Of a stretch of 48,470 nucleotides of DNA, positions 188 through 23,519 are shown piece by piece. Each line of letters begins with the position of its first letter. Positions within the stretch are counted from its first letter, which is position 1. A program made the position numbers and the translations under genes. The DNA comes from Rouxiella silvae (GTDB taxonomy: Bacteria > Pseudomonadota > Gammaproteobacteria > Enterobacterales > Enterobacteriaceae), in assembly GCF_002093625.1 (NCBI RefSeq), contig NZ_MRWD01000045.1, positions 1-48,470 of the forward strand. The letters run 5' to 3'. Below the pieces are notes generated by a model. That model worked only from the letters and a program-made list of their open reading frames with translations, ran no database searches and had not been told where the DNA came from.

Positions 188-1011
188 ATAAACTCCTTGA
201 AACTCGGCTGCCACTAAATATGTGCAACATAGCAGGCTGTACAGCTTTTTGATTAATTAACACCGGATTGGCGCCACCAGTTTGACGTTGCAACTGCAAG
301 GTTACTGACACTGGATAGAATAAGCAAAGTGTACAGTTGGAGGGAAAAGAGGTGGGAAAGTATGTTACCGGCCTAGCTGTTAGGATTGACTTGATAATTG
401 AGATCTCACCGTTTGAATCAAATTCAACTGGTCTGCAATGTCCGCTCTTCGCTCAAAGCTGCCCCTCAGCATTTGTCTGCTTAAAAATAGTCTTAGCATG
501 GCTTATTTTGGCTTTTCCAAACGGATCCCTGCCTCAACGAAAAGTAGCCGATTTGAGAACATACCAGCGATATCAAATAGGCGGTTCCGAAGACAACCCA
601 CTTTTGAGCGTTCAGGCGCTTTTCTTAAGAGAAACTTTATGAAGGATGAATGTGGGCTAGTTTGACCTGCTCCCCGCTGATTAGTACAACCCGATTTTAG
701 TAATGTCTTCGTTTTGACCCGCTCCAGTGCATCTGAGGGGGCGAAACGGCTCGTATACAACTTACCTTTACCAATGCCCACTCAGTCAACCTTCACAGTT
801 TTGCTGTCCAGAAAACTATCATCGTGAGCGGGAAAGGGTATGATTAAATAGAGGTTTTAAACACATTTAACTTAAAAAAGCTGCAATATGGATAGCGTTT
901 AAGAGAGGAACAGGCTTAAGAGCAGGATACGTTGTGAAAGTCACGAGGCTTAAATCTAACGTCTTACTTGTATTGTGTTTATGAATACTGACTGTGAAGA
1001 TGACGTACAAC
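188..1011. other. Non-coding stretch with repeat and IS-like remnants
   Basis: No convincing gene is present. Short open frames overlap each other and a dispersed repeat (437-534). The stretch at 664-723 contains the string TTGACCTGCTCCC, and TCTGACCTGCTCCC recurs at 17219-17232, in both places within about 250 bases of a copy of the dispersed repeat, so a common degraded mobile element is possible. Confidence 0.5.
437..534 (+). repeat. Dispersed intergenic repeat, copy 1
   Basis: Begins AATGTCCGCTCTTCGCTCAA and ends near AAACGGATCCCT. It aligns over nearly its whole length with 17261-17349, including the shared block TTCGCTCAAAGCTGCC, and its start resembles the other copies at 7329, 8197, 13880, 14940 and 16203. 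Confidence 0.6.
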
Positions 1012-16322: not shown

Positions 16323-16599
16323 TTATGACGAGACTTAAGGATATTCCAAGCGTAAGGTGATTTCGAATTACTAATAGGTGACTTTTAACTAAAGATAAGT
16401 TATATGTAATATTAAATTTTGATTATCAACTTACTACGTTTATATAGCAAATAATCATAATTTTTAGAGCATATAACATGTCAAAATCTCTTTATTAGAG
16501 GGGGTTATGTTGTAAGGTTAATAATTTCTATTAAGTGAATTTAAAATTTAATGGTAAATGTTCAGTGGGAAAAGGTTAGTTATTTTTATGGGAGGAAAT

Positions 16600-17187
16600 A
16601 TGTCAGAAGATAATTATAATTATGCCATGTATACTTTTCAGGTGGGGACTCACCCTTTTCATGGCGTTGAAATGCTTATCTCGAACATGATAAAAAACTT
16701 TAAAGAGGTCACTAGTCATTCGTGTGGATCTTTCAGTACTACTAAAGATAGGATTGGAAGAAATGCAATTAGCGATACAGCGATTGTCATGTCTTACTCG
16801 TTACTTGAGGGTTTTTTTGACGAAGAGTATGATTTTTATATAAGTAAAAATAAAAACTCCAAAAAACCAGGGGAGCTAAGTGCTTTAATTAACACTGTGA
16901 TTTATGATCGAGGTGTTAAAGTGGAAGACTGGAGAAGAAGAAGAAAGGTCATCGATTTGTTTAAGGATGTACGTAATGCTGTTGTGCATAGCAATGGAAG
17001 GATAGATGCCTGTGTTTATAGGGGGGGGTTCTTAAAGCTTTTGGGTGTTGATTTATTTGAACATGCTGATGGTTACCTAACGCTGACTTTTGATGCATCG
17101 CTATGGCTAATAAATGAATTTAGAAGTATCGCTCAAGAATATGCGGAAGCGGTATTTATGGGAGATAGAGAAATAAAGAGTGACTAG
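16600..17187 (+). CDS. HEPN-like hypothetical protein
   Basis: A 195-residue helical protein without a name that I recognise. I chose the ATG at 16600 because GGGAGG lies directly upstream at good spacing. LFKDVRNAVVHSNGRI contains R125-x4-H130, the motif of HEPN-superfamily ribonucleases and RiboL-PSP-HEPN proteins, preceded by a helical region with SLLEGFFDEEYDF, the usual acidic first helix region. The gene is markedly AT-rich compared with neighbours and stands alone between repeat remnants. HEPN proteins often act as toxins or abortive-infection effectors, but MNT-type partners are absent, so a structural or tRNA-binding role is equally possible. Confidence 0.6.
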   Translation: MSEDNYNYAMYTFQVGTHPFHGVEMLISNMIKNFKEVTSHSCGSFSTTKDRIGRNAISDTAIVMSYSLLEGFFDEEYDFYISKNKNSKKPGELSALINTVIYDRGVKVEDWRRRRKVIDLFKDVRNAVVHSNGRIDACVYRGGFLKLLGVDLFEHADGYLTLTFDASLWLINEFRSIAQEYAEAVFMGDREIKSD

Positions 17188-17681: not shown

Positions 17682-17734
17682 TTGACGAATTACTTACACC
17701 AACCTAACATAAAAAGCACTGTAATTATGTACAG
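17682..17734 (+). promoter_or_regulatory. Promoter with LexA box for the bacteriocin operon
   Basis: TTGACG (17682-17687) and TAACAT (17705-17710) have a 17-base spacer, a good sigma-70 layout. CTGTAATTATGTACAG at 17719-17734 fits the LexA consensus CTGT-N8-ACAG exactly in its conserved arms and would cover the transcription start. This is the arrangement of colicin promoters, repressed by LexA and opened during DNA damage. The first gene begins 95 bases downstream. Confidence 0.8.
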
Positions 17735-17829
17735 TACTTTTGCCTGAGATCATCAGACCAAGTAGCGTGCTCTGCTTGCTCGGTAATCACGGACTAATGG
17801 ATTTTTTCATTTTAACTCAAGGAATTATC

Positions 17830-18963
17830 ATGGCAGATAAGCAAAATTCGCAGGTACAGAACGGCGTCAATGACGACATAACCGAACTTAAATCCCTGAC
17901 CCAACTTCGAAAACGTGTCATCAGCGATTCTGAACTGGTGTCGATGTCGCAAAATGCATTCAGACTCGCTTATGGCAATCGCGGCGTGCTACTGCGTAAC
18001 GATGGCAGTGATTTCTCGATGCTGACGACAGAAAACGGTCAGGCTCGTGATGGTAATCCGAACACGCTTCGCCCATTGTCTTTTAATCTGAATACCGGTC
18101 GCGTTTCGGTACGAAACGGATTAGATGTAGCCGGAGGGTTGATCACGTCTAACGACGCGGGTATCTCGGCGAGCACCACTGGACCCAATCCAATGATAGC
18201 CGGACAGACTTACCTGTCGCCTGCCATCACTTCCGATTTTATCAGCGGTAATGTGAAGACGACCATGCTGATGGGTTCGCGAGTGGTTGCCGGCAAGGAG
18301 GATTATGGCTTCGTTTCCTATCGGGATTGGCAGGGCGGATGGAACGAAATTCGAGTCAGGAAAAATCGCGAACTCGAGGCGGGGCAGTACCTTAAGGTTA
18401 ATCCTGATGGCTGGTTCACCGCGCGCGGTGACTACCTTACCAATAACAACAAAGACCGTACCACCAACGGTTATCGTGTGCAGGGTATTGGCGATTTATT
18501 TGCCGACATATATCACTACGAGCGCATAGGAAGTCACCACTTCCTTGCCATGCACGTCGCTAACGGCGGAGGCCAGGGTTGGTACGAGTTCCGTAATAAC
18601 GGCGATGCGTTTACGAACGGGAGCTGGCATTCCAGTTCAGACGTCAGGATGAAGACCGACATAAAAAAAATTCATAACGCGTTAGAAAAACTCGATCAGT
18701 TGCATGGCTATACCTATCTGAAGCAGGGGGTCCCTGAGGCCGGTGTTATCGCGCAAGAGGTCGAACAGGTTCTGCCTGAATCCGTATTACAAACAAGCCT
18801 GCGCCTGAATGATGGAACTGAGTTGGAAGATGCCCGGGGAATTAATATCAATGGCGTGGTAGCCCTGCTTGTTGAGGCTCTCCGTGAAGAGAAACAGGCA
18901 CGCGTTGCCCTGGAAGTTCGCCTGGCATTGCTGGAAACCGCCGCTGCGGGTGGAAAGGAATAA
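17830..18963 (+). CDS. Phage-type fibre protein with S74 intramolecular chaperone
   Basis: A 377-residue fibre-like protein. The N-terminal part (QNAFRLAYGNRGVLLRNDG, then NGLDVAGGLITSND) resembles tail-fibre and shufflon-type distal proteins; the middle is beta-rich and polar. The C-terminus carries a peptidase S74 chaperone domain: SSDVRMKTDIKKI with the Ser-Asp self-cleavage site, then LDQLHGYTYL, AGVIAQEVEQVLPESV and a final helix that forms a trimeric coiled coil. Such domains drive trimerisation and are cleaved off. AAGGAA precedes the ATG at 17830. No other phage structural genes are near. It is the first gene after the LexA-controlled promoter and 33 bases ahead of the bacteriocin gene, so it may act in target recognition for it; this is inference. 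Confidence 0.82.
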   Translation: MADKQNSQVQNGVNDDITELKSLTQLRKRVISDSELVSMSQNAFRLAYGNRGVLLRNDGSDFSMLTTENGQARDGNPNTLRPLSFNLNTGRVSVRNGLDVAGGLITSNDAGISASTTGPNPMIAGQTYLSPAITSDFISGNVKTTMLMGSRVVAGKEDYGFVSYRDWQGGWNEIRVRKNRELEAGQYLKVNPDGWFTARGDYLTNNNKDRTTNGYRVQGIGDLFADIYHYERIGSHHFLAMHVANGGGQGWYEFRNNGDAFTNGSWHSSSDVRMKTDIKKIHNALEKLDQLHGYTYLKQGVPEAGVIAQEVEQVLPESVLQTSLRLNDGTELEDARGININGVVALLVEALREEKQARVALEVRLALLETAAAGGKE

Positions 18964-18996
18964 CCATGAAAACAAGAAAAATAAAGGGAGAAAACA

Positions 18997-21114
18997 ATGA
19001 GCGGATTTGATTATGGTGGCGGGCCCGGCGATGGCACCCCCTGGAGTGAGGAGAGAGGAAAGTTACCTGATCCGGGCGGTGGCAAGGTAGGGAATAGCGG
19101 TAATGGTGAATACGGAAGCTCTACGGGAAATACCCTTGCAGATCAGCAGATTTCAGACATTTTAAATGATAAAGATGTTCATCAGAAATTGAGTAATCTG
19201 ATCGCCGCGGCACGCGGCTTAAATCCATCTGTAACAATGCAGGGAACACTCCTAACGGCAACCGGAACATTGACACTTGCGTTTAACGGATTAAATGTCG
19301 AACAGGTGACACAGCTTGGATTGCGTGGGGCAGCCATGGATGTAACCCCTGAAGGGAAGCCTCCTATAGGTTACGGCGATATCGAAACCGGCCATGCTCA
19401 GCCCAAGGGAACTCCCATTGCTGGCGGTAACAATGATGTGGGTGCTGACACAATAGGAAAATCCTCTGTGGGGACTTTGGTCTCTGTTGTACAAGGAACA
19501 ATACCACCAGGCTTTTGGCTGAATAACGGCAAGGTGATGACACAGTTAAAAAAGACAGTCATCACCGGTGGTAACGGTAAAAACGGAACGACGCAAACCA
19601 GTGTTGTCACCTATGACAGCGAGGTGCCGCAGCTGACTGAGGCTTACAGTGAAGGGGTAAAACAACGGGCTGAGGCCGCAGCTAAGGCCGAAGCCAGAGC
19701 GAAAGCCGAGGCAGAAGCCAGGGATAAAGCAGAAGCTGAGGCGAGAGCTAAGGCGGAGACGGCGAAAAGAGAGGCCGCGGAAGCACAGGCCCGAGCTGAA
19801 GCCGAAGCCCGAGTGAAAGCTGAAGCTCAGGCGCGTGCGGAAGCGCTTGCACAGGCAATGAAGAAAGCGGGCATAGAGCCAACACCTAATTGGACGCAAG
19901 AAAAAGCCGGCGCGGCTACTGCAGCATTATCCTCCGCGGGGACCCTTGCTTTGAACCGTGCTTCAGGAATGATGCAGCTTGGCATAGCGGGTAAAGGCGT
20001 TTTGACCACAACCAGTGAACTGGCTGGTTATATTGCAGGGGCAGTGTGGCGCGGTGCTGTTTCTTTAGGCCGAATTGCGGTAGTTACGCCCGCGGGCGCT
20101 GTAATAACGGCAATAGTGGGCGGACTTTGGCCTACTGAAGCAGGAAGTGGCAGCGATAAAGTGCCTGGTCGTGATGTCCCGGCTATTTTTGGGGTACAAG
20201 CGGGTCTGATGACGGCTGGGATGGTCAACATTGCACCGGGAATGAAGACGGTAAACTTGCCGGTACGTGGGTCACTGGTTTATGAGGAGGGGCGCCTTGC
20301 GGTAAAGTTGGTTAAGACTGGTGGAAGTGTGCCTGCTGAGGTCCAGGTATTGACTGGCGTACGTGATGCGGTAACCGGATTAGACCGTATAACAGTACCT
20401 GCAGTTGCGGGGATGCCCTCCAGAACGGTTCTGATTAACCCAGTACCTTTTGGACCCGCAGCTCCGCCAAATACAGGCAATACCGCGCCGGCACCTGTCA
20501 CGCCCGTACACACAGGGAACACGTTCAGGCAGGCGGACAGTATCGTCACGACAACCCTGCCGATATATGAAGGTGCAGGATTACAGGACTTTATCTACTG
20601 GCAACCGGATGCTACGGGGACCGGCGTCGAGCCCGTCTATGTCATGATCAGCGATATCTATGGTGAAACCAACGCCAAGGGAAAGTACAGCGGGCGTGAT
20701 TATCATACTGAAAAGTCCGGAGGCCCAATTCTAAATCTGGATTGGAAAACTGCGAAGATTGATAGTGTTGGCATTGATAAAGTTAAGTTACATACGAGCC
20801 GGTTCCCCCCTTCAGATGGTAACAAAATGATGATCGACCGTTTGGAGAAAATTTTAAATAATAAAATACCAGTGACAGATACAGATAAGCGATTTTATAC
20901 TCATGAGATTAGAGAGCTAGAGCGATACAGGAATTTGGGTATAAAAGATGGCGAAGTTCCTCAAAGCATTTCGAGGCGAAAAGAACTATGGAATAATACC
21001 CATACTGCAACTCTAGAGGATTATAAAATAAACGAAAGAGAACTGAGCCTTTATACTGATGAGGCCCTACAAGCCGATTATGAACAGGAACTTAAAGATG
21101 CCTTGGGAGGATAA
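18997..21114 (+). CDS. Colicin/S-type-pyocin-like bacteriocin
   Basis: A 705-residue bacteriocin-like protein. Residues 1-50 are glycine-rich and disordered as in nuclease colicins, with DGTPWSEE at 12-19 resembling the TolB-binding box of E colicins (DGSGWSSE). Residues about 215-290 form a long Ala/Glu/Lys/Arg coiled coil, similar to the receptor-binding hairpin of E colicins. A hydrophobic region and an S-type pyocin translocation domain follow (about 330-555, ending near PVYVMISDIYG). The last 145 residues are a separate toxin domain with GRDYHTEKSGGP, LHTSRF, YTHEIRELERY and NNTHTATLEDY; I cannot name it, but the conserved His/Glu pattern suggests a nuclease. GGAG precedes the start. A small gene follows 4 bases after the stop, as immunity genes do. 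Confidence 0.85.
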   Translation: MSGFDYGGGPGDGTPWSEERGKLPDPGGGKVGNSGNGEYGSSTGNTLADQQISDILNDKDVHQKLSNLIAAARGLNPSVTMQGTLLTATGTLTLAFNGLNVEQVTQLGLRGAAMDVTPEGKPPIGYGDIETGHAQPKGTPIAGGNNDVGADTIGKSSVGTLVSVVQGTIPPGFWLNNGKVMTQLKKTVITGGNGKNGTTQTSVVTYDSEVPQLTEAYSEGVKQRAEAAAKAEARAKAEAEARDKAEAEARAKAETAKREAAEAQARAEAEARVKAEAQARAEALAQAMKKAGIEPTPNWTQEKAGAATAALSSAGTLALNRASGMMQLGIAGKGVLTTTSELAGYIAGAVWRGAVSLGRIAVVTPAGAVITAIVGGLWPTEAGSGSDKVPGRDVPAIFGVQAGLMTAGMVNIAPGMKTVNLPVRGSLVYEEGRLAVKLVKTGGSVPAEVQVLTGVRDAVTGLDRITVPAVAGMPSRTVLINPVPFGPAAPPNTGNTAPAPVTPVHTGNTFRQADSIVTTTLPIYEGAGLQDFIYWQPDATGTGVEPVYVMISDIYGETNAKGKYSGRDYHTEKSGGPILNLDWKTAKIDSVGIDKVKLHTSRFPPSDGNKMMIDRLEKILNNKIPVTDTDKRFYTHEIRELERYRNLGIKDGEVPQSISRRKELWNNTHTATLEDYKINERELSLYTDEALQADYEQELKDALGG

Positions 21115-21118
21115 TTCA

Positions 21119-21376
21119 ATGTCTTTAAAAGATATAATCAAAAATGAAAGTGTAGAGGATATATTAACATTTTTAGGACCAACGTCTGACTATCCAAAGT
21201 TAGATAAGTTATTTACATACAACCGATATGATGTAATTACCAGTGGAGAACTTTCATCTAAATACGATGAGTTATTTAGAAAAGGTGTACTAGCTGATCA
21301 AAATGGGAAAGTCGTAAAAGGCCCAAATTGGAAAACCCCTAAATTTGTTACTGAGAAAAAATACGGTATCGCATAA
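21119..21376 (+). CDS. Probable cognate immunity protein
   Basis: An 85-residue protein starting 4 bases after the bacteriocin stop, with GGAGG at ideal spacing. It has an N-terminal helical part (LKDIIKNESVEDILTFLG) and ends with VVKGPNWKTPKFVTEKKYGI, a conserved-looking tail that I associate with small immunity-like proteins. The position, size and strong ribosome site (needed for excess over toxin) support the immunity role; I cannot assign a family. It is followed by an intrinsic terminator, so it is the last gene of the LexA-controlled transcript. AT-rich relative to the fibre gene, like the toxin-coding 3' end. Confidence 0.75.
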   Translation: MSLKDIIKNESVEDILTFLGPTSDYPKLDKLFTYNRYDVITSGELSSKYDELFRKGVLADQNGKVVKGPNWKTPKFVTEKKYGIA

Positions 21377-21409
21377 TCGCTAGCGCTATCTGATAAGTGC
21401 GCTTTAAGC

Positions 21410-21446
21410 AACGTCCAGCAAACGAGGGTTTGTTGGACGTTTTCTT
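21410..21446 (+). terminator. Intrinsic terminator of the bacteriocin operon
   Basis: AACGTCCAGCAAAC and GTTTGTTGGACGTT form a 14-base stem with one mismatch and a 4-base loop, followed by TTCTTT. It lies 33 bases after the immunity stop. A weak IS903-type end (21494-21508) follows in the gap before the next gene. Confidence 0.85.
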
Positions 21447-21588
21447 TGGCGGTTAGAAAGGGAAACCGAACCTAATTCTGACCAGGATTTCGAACTATTC
21501 AACAAAGCGTATAAGCGTATCAATGCTCGACTATTTGGGGTTAACTACATATCTATGAGAAGGATTTTAGATATTAAATGGAGTTAAC

Positions 21589-22434
21589 ATGTTTATATCC
21601 AGCCACTTTCGGTCGTTGTCGCTTTTACCTCTCTTATTCCTTTTTTCCTGTACGACACAAATCAAAAAAGTACAGAATGAGACTTCTCAGCAGGTCGTAT
21701 CTGGCGCAACAAGCGTCAATTGCCCTGTAGGTTGTCCTGTGGGCGGCAGTATTCAGACTGTTACCCGCGAAGCTTATACATTGAACAACAATCCTGATAC
21801 GAAGTTTGCCAACTGGGTTGCCTATACGATAACCAAAACCAGTCAGGCAAGCGGTCGCCCCCGTAACTGGAAACGCGATCCTGCTCTGCCTGAATCAGAT
21901 ACTCTGTCTCCCGCCGCATATACAGGCGCCAACGGTGAACTCGCCGTAGACAGAGGCCATCAGGCCCCCTTGGCCAGCCTGGGCGGTACTGCTGATTGGC
22001 CGTCATTAAACTACTTATCTAATATCACGCCCCAAAAGTCAGCGCTCAATCAAGGCCCATGGGCGCGGCTAGAGGATAAAGAACGCGCTTTGGTCAATCA
22101 GGACGAGGGCACGGACGTTCACTCAGTGACCGGCCCGTTGTTTGAAAGGGATATAGCGGTTTTACCTGCTGCACCTGCAATACAGATCCCCAGCGGTTAC
22201 TGGAAGATAATCTTCATTGGCTCTGGGCCGGACAAGGGAAAATACGCCGCGTTTCTGATGGATCAAAGCGTTCCCAGGGCAGCCAACTTTTGTGATTATC
22301 AGGTCACTGTCAAACAGATTGAGGCAAAAACCAATCCCAATCTGAATATTTGGTCTTCCCTGCCCCCAGAGATTGCCTTAGGTGTTAAAGAAAAAATAGG
22401 AACGCTAGCTAAGGATAAGATGGGATGTCAGTGA
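21589..22434 (+). CDS. Lipoprotein DNA/RNA non-specific endonuclease (NUC family)
   Basis: A 281-residue beta-beta-alpha-metal nuclease of the Serratia nuclease family. A lipoprotein signal ends LLFLFSC with the lipidated Cys21, so the enzyme should sit on a membrane in the periplasm or at the surface, unlike the freely secreted Serratia enzyme. The active-site motif is VDRGHQAP (His124), followed by NYLSNITPQ and the metal-binding Asn with W-x-x-L-E, all in the correct order. GGAG precedes the ATG. The next gene overlaps its stop (TGATG), suggesting translational coupling with a possible inhibitor. Its role could be nutrient nucleic-acid digestion or antagonism. Confidence 0.87.
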   Translation: MFISSHFRSLSLLPLLFLFSCTTQIKKVQNETSQQVVSGATSVNCPVGCPVGGSIQTVTREAYTLNNNPDTKFANWVAYTITKTSQASGRPRNWKRDPALPESDTLSPAAYTGANGELAVDRGHQAPLASLGGTADWPSLNYLSNITPQKSALNQGPWARLEDKERALVNQDEGTDVHSVTGPLFERDIAVLPAAPAIQIPSGYWKIIFIGSGPDKGKYAAFLMDQSVPRAANFCDYQVTVKQIEAKTNPNLNIWSSLPPEIALGVKEKIGTLAKDKMGCQ

Positions 22435-22751: not shown

Positions 22752-22838
22752 AACTAGCATGCTTCACTTGCTACCAGCAGGATTTCGGGATCGAACATCG
22801 GAACCATCAAGCCAGTCAATCGGATGAAGGAACAGGAT

Positions 22839-23519
22839 ATGACCGACACAACAGCAGTGTTCTGGGGCATAGATAAACCCACCTGGGCGGTAATAGGGGC
22901 GATTGCCGCAGTTGCCATTCCGATGATTTACAATATGGTTAACGAAATCATCAAAGCAAGCAGAGAAAGAAAATACGTTATGGTGCAGTTGATTTTCTTG
23001 CTCGACAAGTTTACCTCCGGATGTGAAGCTGTGGCCTGGGATGACGGTTTCCCGCCAGGCCACCCAGGAAATGGCGCTGCGCATAAGCAACATAAGTCGC
23101 CGAAACTCGGTCTGATCACGGTAAAAGGGGAACTAAAGTTTTTAAAAGCAGCACGACTGCATGAACTCCAGAGCATTGATATCAGACAGCGTCAGATCCA
23201 GCAGGAATTACGAGAGGTGGATTGGCAATATGACCACCCTGATTTGAGTAATTATTTTGGACAGCGCCGTAGGCATTATGCCGAACTAGGCATCTTTACA
23301 GCTGAGCTGACGAGGAAAATTTGTCGAGAACTCGTCATCACGCAGGATGAGTGGAAGGGTAAAGAAACGCCAGAGGCATCCTGTCAAAGAAGCCTTATAA
23401 AGTTGAATCGGCGTCGAGCAGACATGACTATGTCGCGTAAATATAACAAGGCAAAATCGGTGATGAAACGCCAAGAAACGGCAAAAAATGCAAAAAGCAG
23501 CAGCGCCAACGACGAATAG
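22839..23519 (+). CDS. One-helix membrane protein of unknown function
   Basis: A 226-residue protein not recognised by name. One membrane helix near the N-terminus (WAVIGAIAAVAIPMIYNMV, about 13-31) is followed by a basic stretch (KASRERKY), so the bulk is probably cytoplasmic. The rest is charged and helical (RQRQIQQELREV, RRRHYAELG) and ends in a Lys/Ser-rich tail. The start at 22839 follows AAGGAACAGGAT; ATG 22824 is an alternative. It is codirectional with the nuclease pair but 87 bases away. Confidence 0.6.
   Translation: MTDTTAVFWGIDKPTWAVIGAIAAVAIPMIYNMVNEIIKASRERKYVMVQLIFLLDKFTSGCEAVAWDDGFPPGHPGNGAAHKQHKSPKLGLITVKGELKFLKAARLHELQSIDIRQRQIQQELREVDWQYDHPDLSNYFGQRRRHYAELGIFTAELTRKICRELVITQDEWKGKETPEASCQRSLIKLNRRRADMTMSRKYNKAKSVMKRQETAKNAKSSSANDE

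What the first reader, a model, noticed from the sequence alone, without database searches (positions are those of the whole stretch)
17682..21447. LexA-controlled operon pairing a phage fibre (S74 chaperone) with a Tol-type colicin and immunity gene
Seen: a sigma-70 promoter with an exact CTGT-N8-ACAG LexA site, then a fibre protein ending in an S74 self-cleaving chaperone domain, then 33 bases later a colicin/S-type-pyocin-like protein, then a small gene 4 bases on, then a terminator. Known: nuclease colicins are SOS-induced and normally carry receptor binding in the same chain; S74 domains mature trimeric phage fibres. Inference: the fibre may be a separate, trimeric receptor-binding or delivery subunit of a two-component bacteriocin, which I do not know as a described arrangement. 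No other phage tail genes or lysis gene lie nearby.
Basis: partly seen in the sequence, partly recalled or inferred. Interest (0 to 1): 0.85.

Follow-up and report, generated by a model that had tools for sequence, protein, structure and literature searches.

The report
Phage fibre partnered with a colicin
A phage-tail-fibre gene sits just in front of a colicin-like bacterial toxin gene and its likely immunity gene, a layout known since 2005 from Klebsiella, and comparison of relatives shows that the fibre keeps company with one lineage of the toxin's middle domain while the other toxin parts are swapped, so the fibre is likely a detachable targeting part that aids killing without being essential for it.

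Summary
In detail: LexA-type box, fibre with S74 chaperone, colicin-like toxin, small probable immunity gene and terminator-like hairpin lie as described. The claim that the arrangement is undescribed is wrong: it is the phage-associated bacteriocin layout of klebicins C and D (kcp/kca/kci, Chavan 2005, known here through citations). An obligate two-component toxin is unlikely, because published klebicin C with a swapped nuclease kills as an isolated protein. New here: in 41 distinct relatives the 24 fibre-linked central (colicin D-like) domains form one clade (100/100), whereas uptake modules on one side and the window's type of killing module on the other cross between fibre-linked and fibre-less toxins. 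A LexA-like box lies before 41 of 41 fibre genes read (near-copies included). In one Pluralibacter gergoviae-type locus the S74 domain is replaced by another phage tip plus its own assembly-chaperone gene. Best reading: a trimeric targeting subunit that works with the toxin's central domain and helps adsorption. Not shown: physical contact, SOS induction, or any effect on killing. The window's toxin combines a colicin A-like TolB-type start with a killing domain for which no solved relative was found. New member of a known kind; the fibre's role becomes testable.

The parts
17682..17710 (+). sigma-70-like promoter (TTGACG-17-TAACAT)
   Evidence: 9 of 12 matches; consensus match only
17719..17734 (+). 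LexA-type (SOS) box CTGTAATTATGTACAG
   Evidence: position conserved before fibre genes of relatives
17830..18963 (+). fibre gene, Kcp (klebicin C phage associated protein) family, 377 aa
17842..18177 (+). fibre residues 5-116: conserved base with a Gp34_trimer-like part
   Evidence: mean pairwise identity 79-82% among 22 fibres
18178..18633 (+). fibre residues 117-268: variable shaft/tip, predicted receptor-binding part
   Evidence: mean pairwise identity 56-66% among 22 fibres; role inferred
18637..18963 (+). S74 intramolecular chaperone, residues 270-377, predicted to cut itself off before Ser270 (Ser270/Lys275 pair)
   Evidence: same Ser and Lys+5 spacing as T5 pb1 Ser1264/Lys1269
18997..21114 (+). 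colicin-like toxin gene, 705 aa
19024..19059 (+). TolB-box-like peptide, residues 10-21 PGDGTPWSEERG
   Evidence: match to colicin A (3iax); colicin A box KGDGTGWSSERG
19609..19881 (+). Ala/Lys/Glu-rich predicted coiled coil, about residues 205-295
   Evidence: TolA-like repeat matches; sequence
19840..20667 (+). central colicin D-like domain, residues 282-557, of the fibre-linked lineage
20227..20646 (+). [quoted passage not shown]
   Evidence: role shown for pyocin G
20668..21111 (+). killing domain, residues 558-705, no Pfam or solved relative found; confident all-helical model
21119..21376 (+). probable immunity gene, 85 aa
   Evidence: position; relatives beside the same killing domain in other loci at 29-47% identity
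21410..21441 (+). intrinsic-terminator-like hairpin, 14 pairs, T tail

Best explanation
This is a klebicin C/D-type phage-associated bacteriocin operon, predicted to be SOS-controlled, in which the fibre is likely a detachable trimeric targeting subunit that works with the toxin's central domain and would help the toxin adsorb to prey without being indispensable. Steps: DNA damage would lift LexA from the box (inferred; box conserved). Fibre, toxin and immunity protein would be made together (inferred from spacing, promoter and terminator). The S74 domain would trimerise the fibre and cut itself off at Ser270, leaving residues 1-269 (predicted from conserved residues). The fibre's conserved base would meet the toxin's central domain (inferred from their joint inheritance) while its variable half binds a surface structure of the prey (inferred). 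The toxin would then use its own colicin A-like N-terminus to reach TolB through its own outer-membrane route, its IMT domain to cross the inner membrane, and the C-terminal domain to kill (predicted from homology).
For: Kcp-family identity: 68% to an annotated klebicin C phage associated protein and 67% to the fibre of L020, whose toxin carries MVSLG at 16-20 counted from its second Met (sequence), the TonB box given for KlebC, and Pfam Cytotoxic. Conserved adjacency, 37 of 40. LexA-like box before 41 of 41 fibre genes read. Central domains: 24 fibre-linked of 41 distinct rows form one clade, support 100/100, 1 change, 0 of 500 shuffles as low; four quarters of the domain give the same split, SH-aLRT 97, 96, 71 and 97. 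Modules on both sides cross the border: uptake modules of one linked family, 6 fibre-linked and 7 fibre-less, one clade rejected, p 4e-40; single pairs are L012/L077 at 55% over 261 residues and L002/L008 at 49% over 230; killing domain of the window's type, 8 and 7, one clade rejected, p 0.00065. Serratia, Enterobacter and group g19 occur on both sides, so host does not explain the split. Fibre base and S74 are conserved and the part between varies. In L095 the switch falls at the S74 border: another phage tip plus a tail-fibre assembly chaperone gene, while the fibre-linked central domain is kept. In 392 family genomes all 7 with a fibre carry the central domain, which is in 19.
Against: No contact, induction or killing was measured. 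Published KlebC hybrid kills without a fibre. Joint inheritance could come from recombination that uses fibre and central domain as homologous arms. tRNase (5 and 4 rows, p 0.18) and DNase (5 and 5 rows, p 0.42) tips did not reject one clade. The uptake-module tree has long branches, gappy rows and odd letter make-up. Fibre and central-domain distances correlate only moderately (r 0.44, Mantel p 0.0001), as common descent would give too. The tip swap with its chaperone gene was seen in one locus. The single-chain fibre model was poor (pLDDT 48).
Confidence: 0.55

Rival explanations
1. The fibre has no part in the toxin's action: it is inherited with the central domain because both serve as recombination arms when modules are exchanged, or it acts by itself, for example by covering phage receptors.
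For: KlebC hybrid kills as an isolated protein; toxins with a fibre-less lineage of the same central domain are common (17 of 41 rows); fibre remnants occur (L019, L069, L070, L079).
Against: The fibre is conserved at 58-69% identity to the window's in 39 other near-full-length loci, with invariant S74 residues and a conserved LexA-like box, and the tip was replaced together with its chaperone in L095, which suggests use. In L069, L070 and L079 the toxin too is cut or lacks the central domain, and L019 shows no toxin.
Confidence: 0.25
2. Obligate two-component bacteriocin: the toxin cannot enter prey unless the fibre carries it.
For: Adjacency and joint inheritance.
Against: Isolated KlebC hybrid kills K. 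pneumoniae, K. variicola, K. quasipneumoniae and E. coli; the authors conclude that its own domains hold all the information needed for transport. The window toxin has its own TolB-type N-terminus.
Confidence: 0.08
3. The fibre is a carrier or stabiliser that holds toxin-immunity complexes together outside the cell (one trimer, three toxins) and gives no target specificity.
For: Trimer-type fibre and joint inheritance with the central domain.
Against: The most variable part of the fibre is the shaft/tip and a whole tip was swapped in L095, the pattern of receptor-binding proteins.
Confidence: 0.1
4. Prophage remnant beside an unrelated colicin gene.
For: The best records of phages match at about 32% identity, long tail fibre distal subunits among them. 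17 viral contigs hold close relatives at 64-68% identity.
Against: All 1449 phage records with a match lie under 60% identity; of the 17 viral contigs 15 carry the toxin's central domain behind the fibre and the other two end too early, so they are carried operons. The pairing recurs in several genera, on plasmids and on megabase contigs.
Confidence: 0.02

Closest known systems
Klebicin C and klebicin D gene clusters (kcp-kca-kci, kdp-kda-kdi), phage-associated bacteriocins (Chavan 2005, seen here only as cited in PMC10269471 and others)
   Same: Gene order fibre-toxin-immunity, Kcp-family fibre (67-68% identity), colicin D-like central domain of the fibre-linked lineage, SOS-type box.
   Different: Here the N-terminus is colicin A-like (TolB type) instead of TolC/TonB type, and the killing domain is of a kind with no Pfam model or solved relative found.
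Colicin D (5ZNM)
   Same: Central domain including Pyocin_S/IMT.
   Different: No fibre gene found beside it; its central domain belongs to the fibre-less lineage (L078); other uptake module and tRNase tip.
Colicin A N-terminal domain (3IAX)
   Same: TolB box region, residues 1-93.
   Different: Colicin A is pore-forming, without Pyocin_S domain or fibre (recalled).
Phage tail fibres: gp34-type (4UXE, 5NXF), tail fiber protein S (5YVQ), long tail fiber distal subunit (6F45); T5 pb1 (phage names T4, Mu and S16 for these entries are recalled)
   Same: Gp34_trimer-like base and S74 chaperone with the Ser/Lys pair.
   Different: Much shorter, encoded apart from tail genes, with a conserved N-terminus: in 10 of the 15 listed best phage matches the alignment begins only at residue 29-34, in 5 of 15 at residue 6.
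Tailocins (R- and F-type pyocins)
   Same: Fibre-guided bacteriocins.
   Different: No sheath, tube or baseplate genes were seen beside the fibre; the killing agent is a single colicin-like protein.

Membership tests
phage-associated bacteriocins of klebicin C/D type | Kcp-family phage-fibre gene directly upstream of the toxin gene | tested here: met
   68% identity to an annotated klebicin C phage associated protein; gap 33 bases
phage-associated bacteriocins of klebicin C/D type | colicin-like activity gene with Pyocin_S and colicin D-like central domain | tested here: met
phage-associated bacteriocins of klebicin C/D type | cognate immunity gene after the activity gene | tested here: inconclusive
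   position and sequence relatives beside the same killing domain; no protection test
phage-associated bacteriocins of klebicin C/D type | SOS (LexA) control | tested here: inconclusive
   box conserved; induction not measured
group A (Tol-dependent) colicins | TolB box in a disordered N-terminus | tested here: inconclusive
   sequence match to colicin A residues 1-87, E 9.2e-9; box PGDGTPWSEERG against KGDGTGWSSERG; no binding or tol-mutant test
S74-type self-cleaving phage fibres | S74 domain with Ser and Lys five residues apart at the cut | tested here: met
   Ser270 and Lys275 invariant in 22 rows; Pfam E 3.3e-15; T5 pb1 pair Ser1264/Lys1269; cleavage itself not tested
colicin DNase, tRNase (colicin D) or rRNase (E3) killing domains | match to PF21431, PF11429 or PF09000 | tested here: not met
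   no such match in the window toxin at E up to 1; relatives with such tips do match
any killing domain of known structure | fold match to a solved structure | tested here: inconclusive

The most novel reading that the evidence does not exclude
A modular two-part colicin family: a phage-derived trimeric fibre docks on one dedicated lineage of toxin central domain and acts as an exchangeable aiming part, so that aiming (fibre tip with its own chaperone), outer-membrane entry (toxin N-module) and killing (C-module) evolve as three independently swapped units around a constant fibre base-central domain core.
Probability: 0.4. Interest if true: 0.85.

Novelty: new member of a known kind. Interest (0 to 1): 0.56.

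Why it matters
I found no test in print of what the phage gene of klebicin C-type operons, reported in 2005, does. The joint inheritance of fibre and toxin central domain points to one interface to test, and the swap of tip plus chaperone suggests a colicin aimed by a separate phage-derived part. If true, target range of such bacteriocins could not be judged from the toxin alone, and purified-toxin assays would miss part of their natural activity.

Tried and rejected
Prophage remnant: rejected, the pairing is conserved; all 1449 matching phage records lie under 60% identity to the fibre and the 17 viral contigs with close relatives are carried operons or end too early to tell. Undescribed arrangement: rejected. 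Fibre-linked killing domains as one clade: rejected for the window's type; a first run (5 changes, p 9e-8) wrongly counted L097 as fibre-less although L097 and L098 look like two ends of one toxin gene broken between contigs, and held two remnants (L006, L092); these three rows were dropped. tRNase and DNase tips: too few rows. Structure of the fibre: single-chain model too poor to search. Killing domain: good model (pLDDT 93) but no fold found with Foldseek or VIA-align, so its activity is unknown. Conserved columns such as His79, Glu80, Glu83, His112 and Glu117 of the domain suggest an enzyme, perhaps metal-dependent; this is a guess. Host as the cause of the central-domain split: not supported. 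Literature: beyond the suggestion repeated in PMC10269471 that Kcp resembles receptor-binding parts, no paper testing Kcp or noting the central-domain link was seen in searches (listings, mostly not opened); the library lacks most subscription papers, and Chavan 2005 itself is known to me only from citations, annotation and recall. Papers: PMC8324772 passages and one section; PMC10269471, PMC6817936, PMC5536347, PMC10906532, PMC12042878, PMC9040868, PMC2821528, PMC4690869 and PMC3120645 passages only.

Full report
What is there. The operon stands as described. A sigma-70-like promoter (17682-17710) is followed by an exact LexA-type box (17719-17734). The fibre gene is best read from ATG 17830 to 18963 (377 aa); the frame stays open back to TTG 17740, but alignment with relatives supports the ATG. 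It holds a Gp34_trimer-like part (27-84) and Peptidase_S74 (270-320). After 33 bases comes a 705-aa toxin (18997-21114) with Pyocin_S at 411-550, after 4 bases an 85-aa gene (21119-21376), then a terminator-like hairpin (21410-21441). One such LexA pattern in 48 kb is no surprise (at least one in 49 of 100 shuffles), but the position is conserved: a box with at most one mismatch lies within 200 bases upstream of 41 of 41 fibre genes whose start was read, 26 of 41 exact, against 6.2% and 0.28% of base-shuffled upstream stretches (near-copies were not removed).

The toxin is a mosaic. Residues 1-93 match the colicin A N-terminus that binds TolB (3iax, E 9.2e-9), residues 275-557 match colicin D (5znm, E 2e-70). 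The TolB-box-like peptide PGDGTPWSEERG compares with KGDGTGWSSERG of colicin A. Pyocin_S is the inner-membrane translocation domain shown to act so in pyocin G. For residues 558-705 no Pfam, NCBIfam or solved relative was found (the profile's one hit, a sortase at E 0.27, is chance-like; one search matched colicin D only in the first 29 residues of a longer piece), though 34 plasmid records carry the domain. Its model is confident and helical (pLDDT 93.3), with no solved fold found by Foldseek or a second look.

It is a known kind. The fibre is 68% identical to an annotated klebicin C phage associated protein. PMC10269471 (passages) describes klebicin C and D clusters as phage-associated gene, activity gene and immunity gene, citing Chavan 2005, and reports the suggestion that the phage proteins are comparable to colicin receptor-binding domains. 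Locus L020 appears to hold klebicin C itself by two marks: MVSLG at residues 16-20 counted from the second Met (sequence; the TonB box) and Pfam Cytotoxic (E3-type rRNase, recalled). For klebicin C an isolated hybrid with the colicin E9 nuclease killed three Klebsiella species and E. coli, and TolC served as its outer-membrane route (that paper's main text holds neither 'phage' nor 'fib' as word starts). So in that case killing does not need the fibre.

How the family is built. I gathered 44 loci with at least part of a Kcp-type fibre (and the window). Of the 40 with a near-full-length fibre (58-69% identity to the window's), 35 are followed by a toxin with a complete central domain and 2 by one cut by a contig end; 1 shows only the toxin's start before the contig ends (L036), 1 ends just after the fibre (L030) and 1 has Tn5403 right behind the fibre (L005). 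In the 37 the gap from fibre to toxin is -4 to 196 bases, except L003 (725; toxin frame split) and L095 (543; a chaperone gene between). The other 4 of 44 are cut fibres (L019, L069, L070, L079). In 392 genomes of the family the fibre (E up to 1e-60) is in 7 and the central domain (E up to 1e-25) in 19; all 7 are among the 19. In 394 genomes of the order the counts are 2 and 3. A protein search scored 279 clusters at E 1e-40 or better, 120 of them listed.

The joint inheritance. After removal of near-copies (97%) 41 central domains of at least 230 residues remained, 24 fibre-linked (one, L069, with a fibre remnant) and 17 without a fibre match in the fetched stretch. The 24 form one side of a branch with support 100/100; 1 change, 13.3 on average in shuffles, 0 of 500 as low. 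Quarters of the domain give the same split with SH-aLRT 97, 96, 71 and 97. The neighbouring modules do not: an uptake-module family linked by sequence matches and present in 6 fibre-linked and 7 fibre-less toxins needs 4 changes and rejects one clade (p 4e-40), though that tree has long branches (L069, L008), gappy rows and odd letter make-up; plain pairs across the border are L012/L077 (55% over 261 residues) and L002/L008 (49% over 230). The window's killing-domain type (8 and 7) needs 4 changes, as few in 83 of 500 shuffles, and rejects one clade (p 0.00065). For tRNase (5 and 4) and DNase (5 and 5) tips one clade is not rejected (p 0.18 and 0.42). Of 8 fibre-linked toxins scanned, Pfam names the tips as DNase in 2, colicin D in 3 and Cytotoxic in 1, and 2 are unnamed. 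Serratia, Enterobacter and the unnamed group g19 hold both kinds. The uptake module lies between the fibre gene and the central domain, so simple closeness on the DNA should tie the fibre to the uptake module first; the reverse is seen. Recombination that uses fibre and central domain as arms could also give this pattern, which is why function is inferred and not shown.

The fibre behaves like a receptor-binding protein. Among 22 fibres, mean pairwise identity is 82% at residues 5-30, 79% at 31-116, 66, 56 and 65% over 117-180, 181-215 and 216-268, and 82% over 270-352 in S74. Ser270 and Lys275 are invariant in 22 rows with the spacing of the T5 pb1 pair Ser1264/Lys1269, so self-cleavage to residues 1-269 is predicted. 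In L095 (fibre 100% identical, as rounded, to Pluralibacter gergoviae P0121) the match to Kcp ends at residue 268; a different sequence follows with weak matches to phage tail proteins, S74 is missing, and a tail-fibre assembly chaperone gene (2295-2828; PF16778 E 1.8e-7, several PHROG tail-fibre assembly families) stands between fibre and toxin. Five listed clusters cover the whole L095 fibre (P0121-P0124, P0126; 120 of 241 hits listed); I read three of them and saw the chaperone gene only in L095. The toxin of L095 still belongs to the fibre-linked clade. Thus tip and chaperone were exchanged as a unit there while the fibre base and the toxin core stayed.

Verdict. The most likely mechanism is an accessory trimeric targeting subunit coupled to the toxin's central domain. 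What is shown: anatomy, family, conserved box, joint inheritance, tip swap. What is inferred: SOS induction, trimer, cleavage, docking, prey receptor, immunity, killing activity.

Noticed in passing
L095:1046-2828: Fibre with the S74 domain replaced by another phage-like tip, followed by a tail-fibre assembly chaperone gene, inside a bacteriocin operon (Pluralibacter gergoviae type).
   Followed up: partly
L020:8496-9311, L028:8808-9263, L031:9047-9667: Fibre-bacteriocin operons in viral contigs lie next to a lambdoid Q-like antiterminator, NinB or NinG gene, so the operon rides in prophages as cargo.
   Followed up: partly
L011:8583-9523, L013:8881-10983, L086:436-1688, L087:6066-6988, L025:8493-8750: Orphan killing-domain pieces and/or immunity-like genes stand near complete toxin operons, as if a reserve of alternative tips.
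   Followed up: no
window 731-811 (-): A 27-residue remnant of the same killing domain (70% identity) lies 17 kb away.
   Followed up: no
P0125: A metagenomic 398-aa protein (contig 1980 bases) joins an L095-type fibre to a colicin DNase domain at a short shared stretch; a deletion or an assembly artefact.
   Followed up: no
window 20668-21111: Killing-domain family with a confident helical model and no solved fold found; 41 invariant columns in 17 rows.
   Followed up: partly
window 22824-23519: Matches PADLOC candidate defence family PDC-S67 (E 1.5e-28).
   Followed up: no
window 16558-17187: Weak HEPN-like matches (Pfam RiboL-PSP-HEPN E 6e-4, below its cut-off; PADLOC RTasHEPN E 0.0017), just upstream of the operon.
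   Followed up: no
window 21589-22434: DNA/RNA non-specific endonuclease (E 3e-45) with a lipoprotein-like start, behind the terminator.
   Followed up: no
L092 (G714:C2:71618-80821): A genome of the window's own genus holds remnants of the same killing domain (82% identity) and no fibre at E 1e-60.
   Followed up: no
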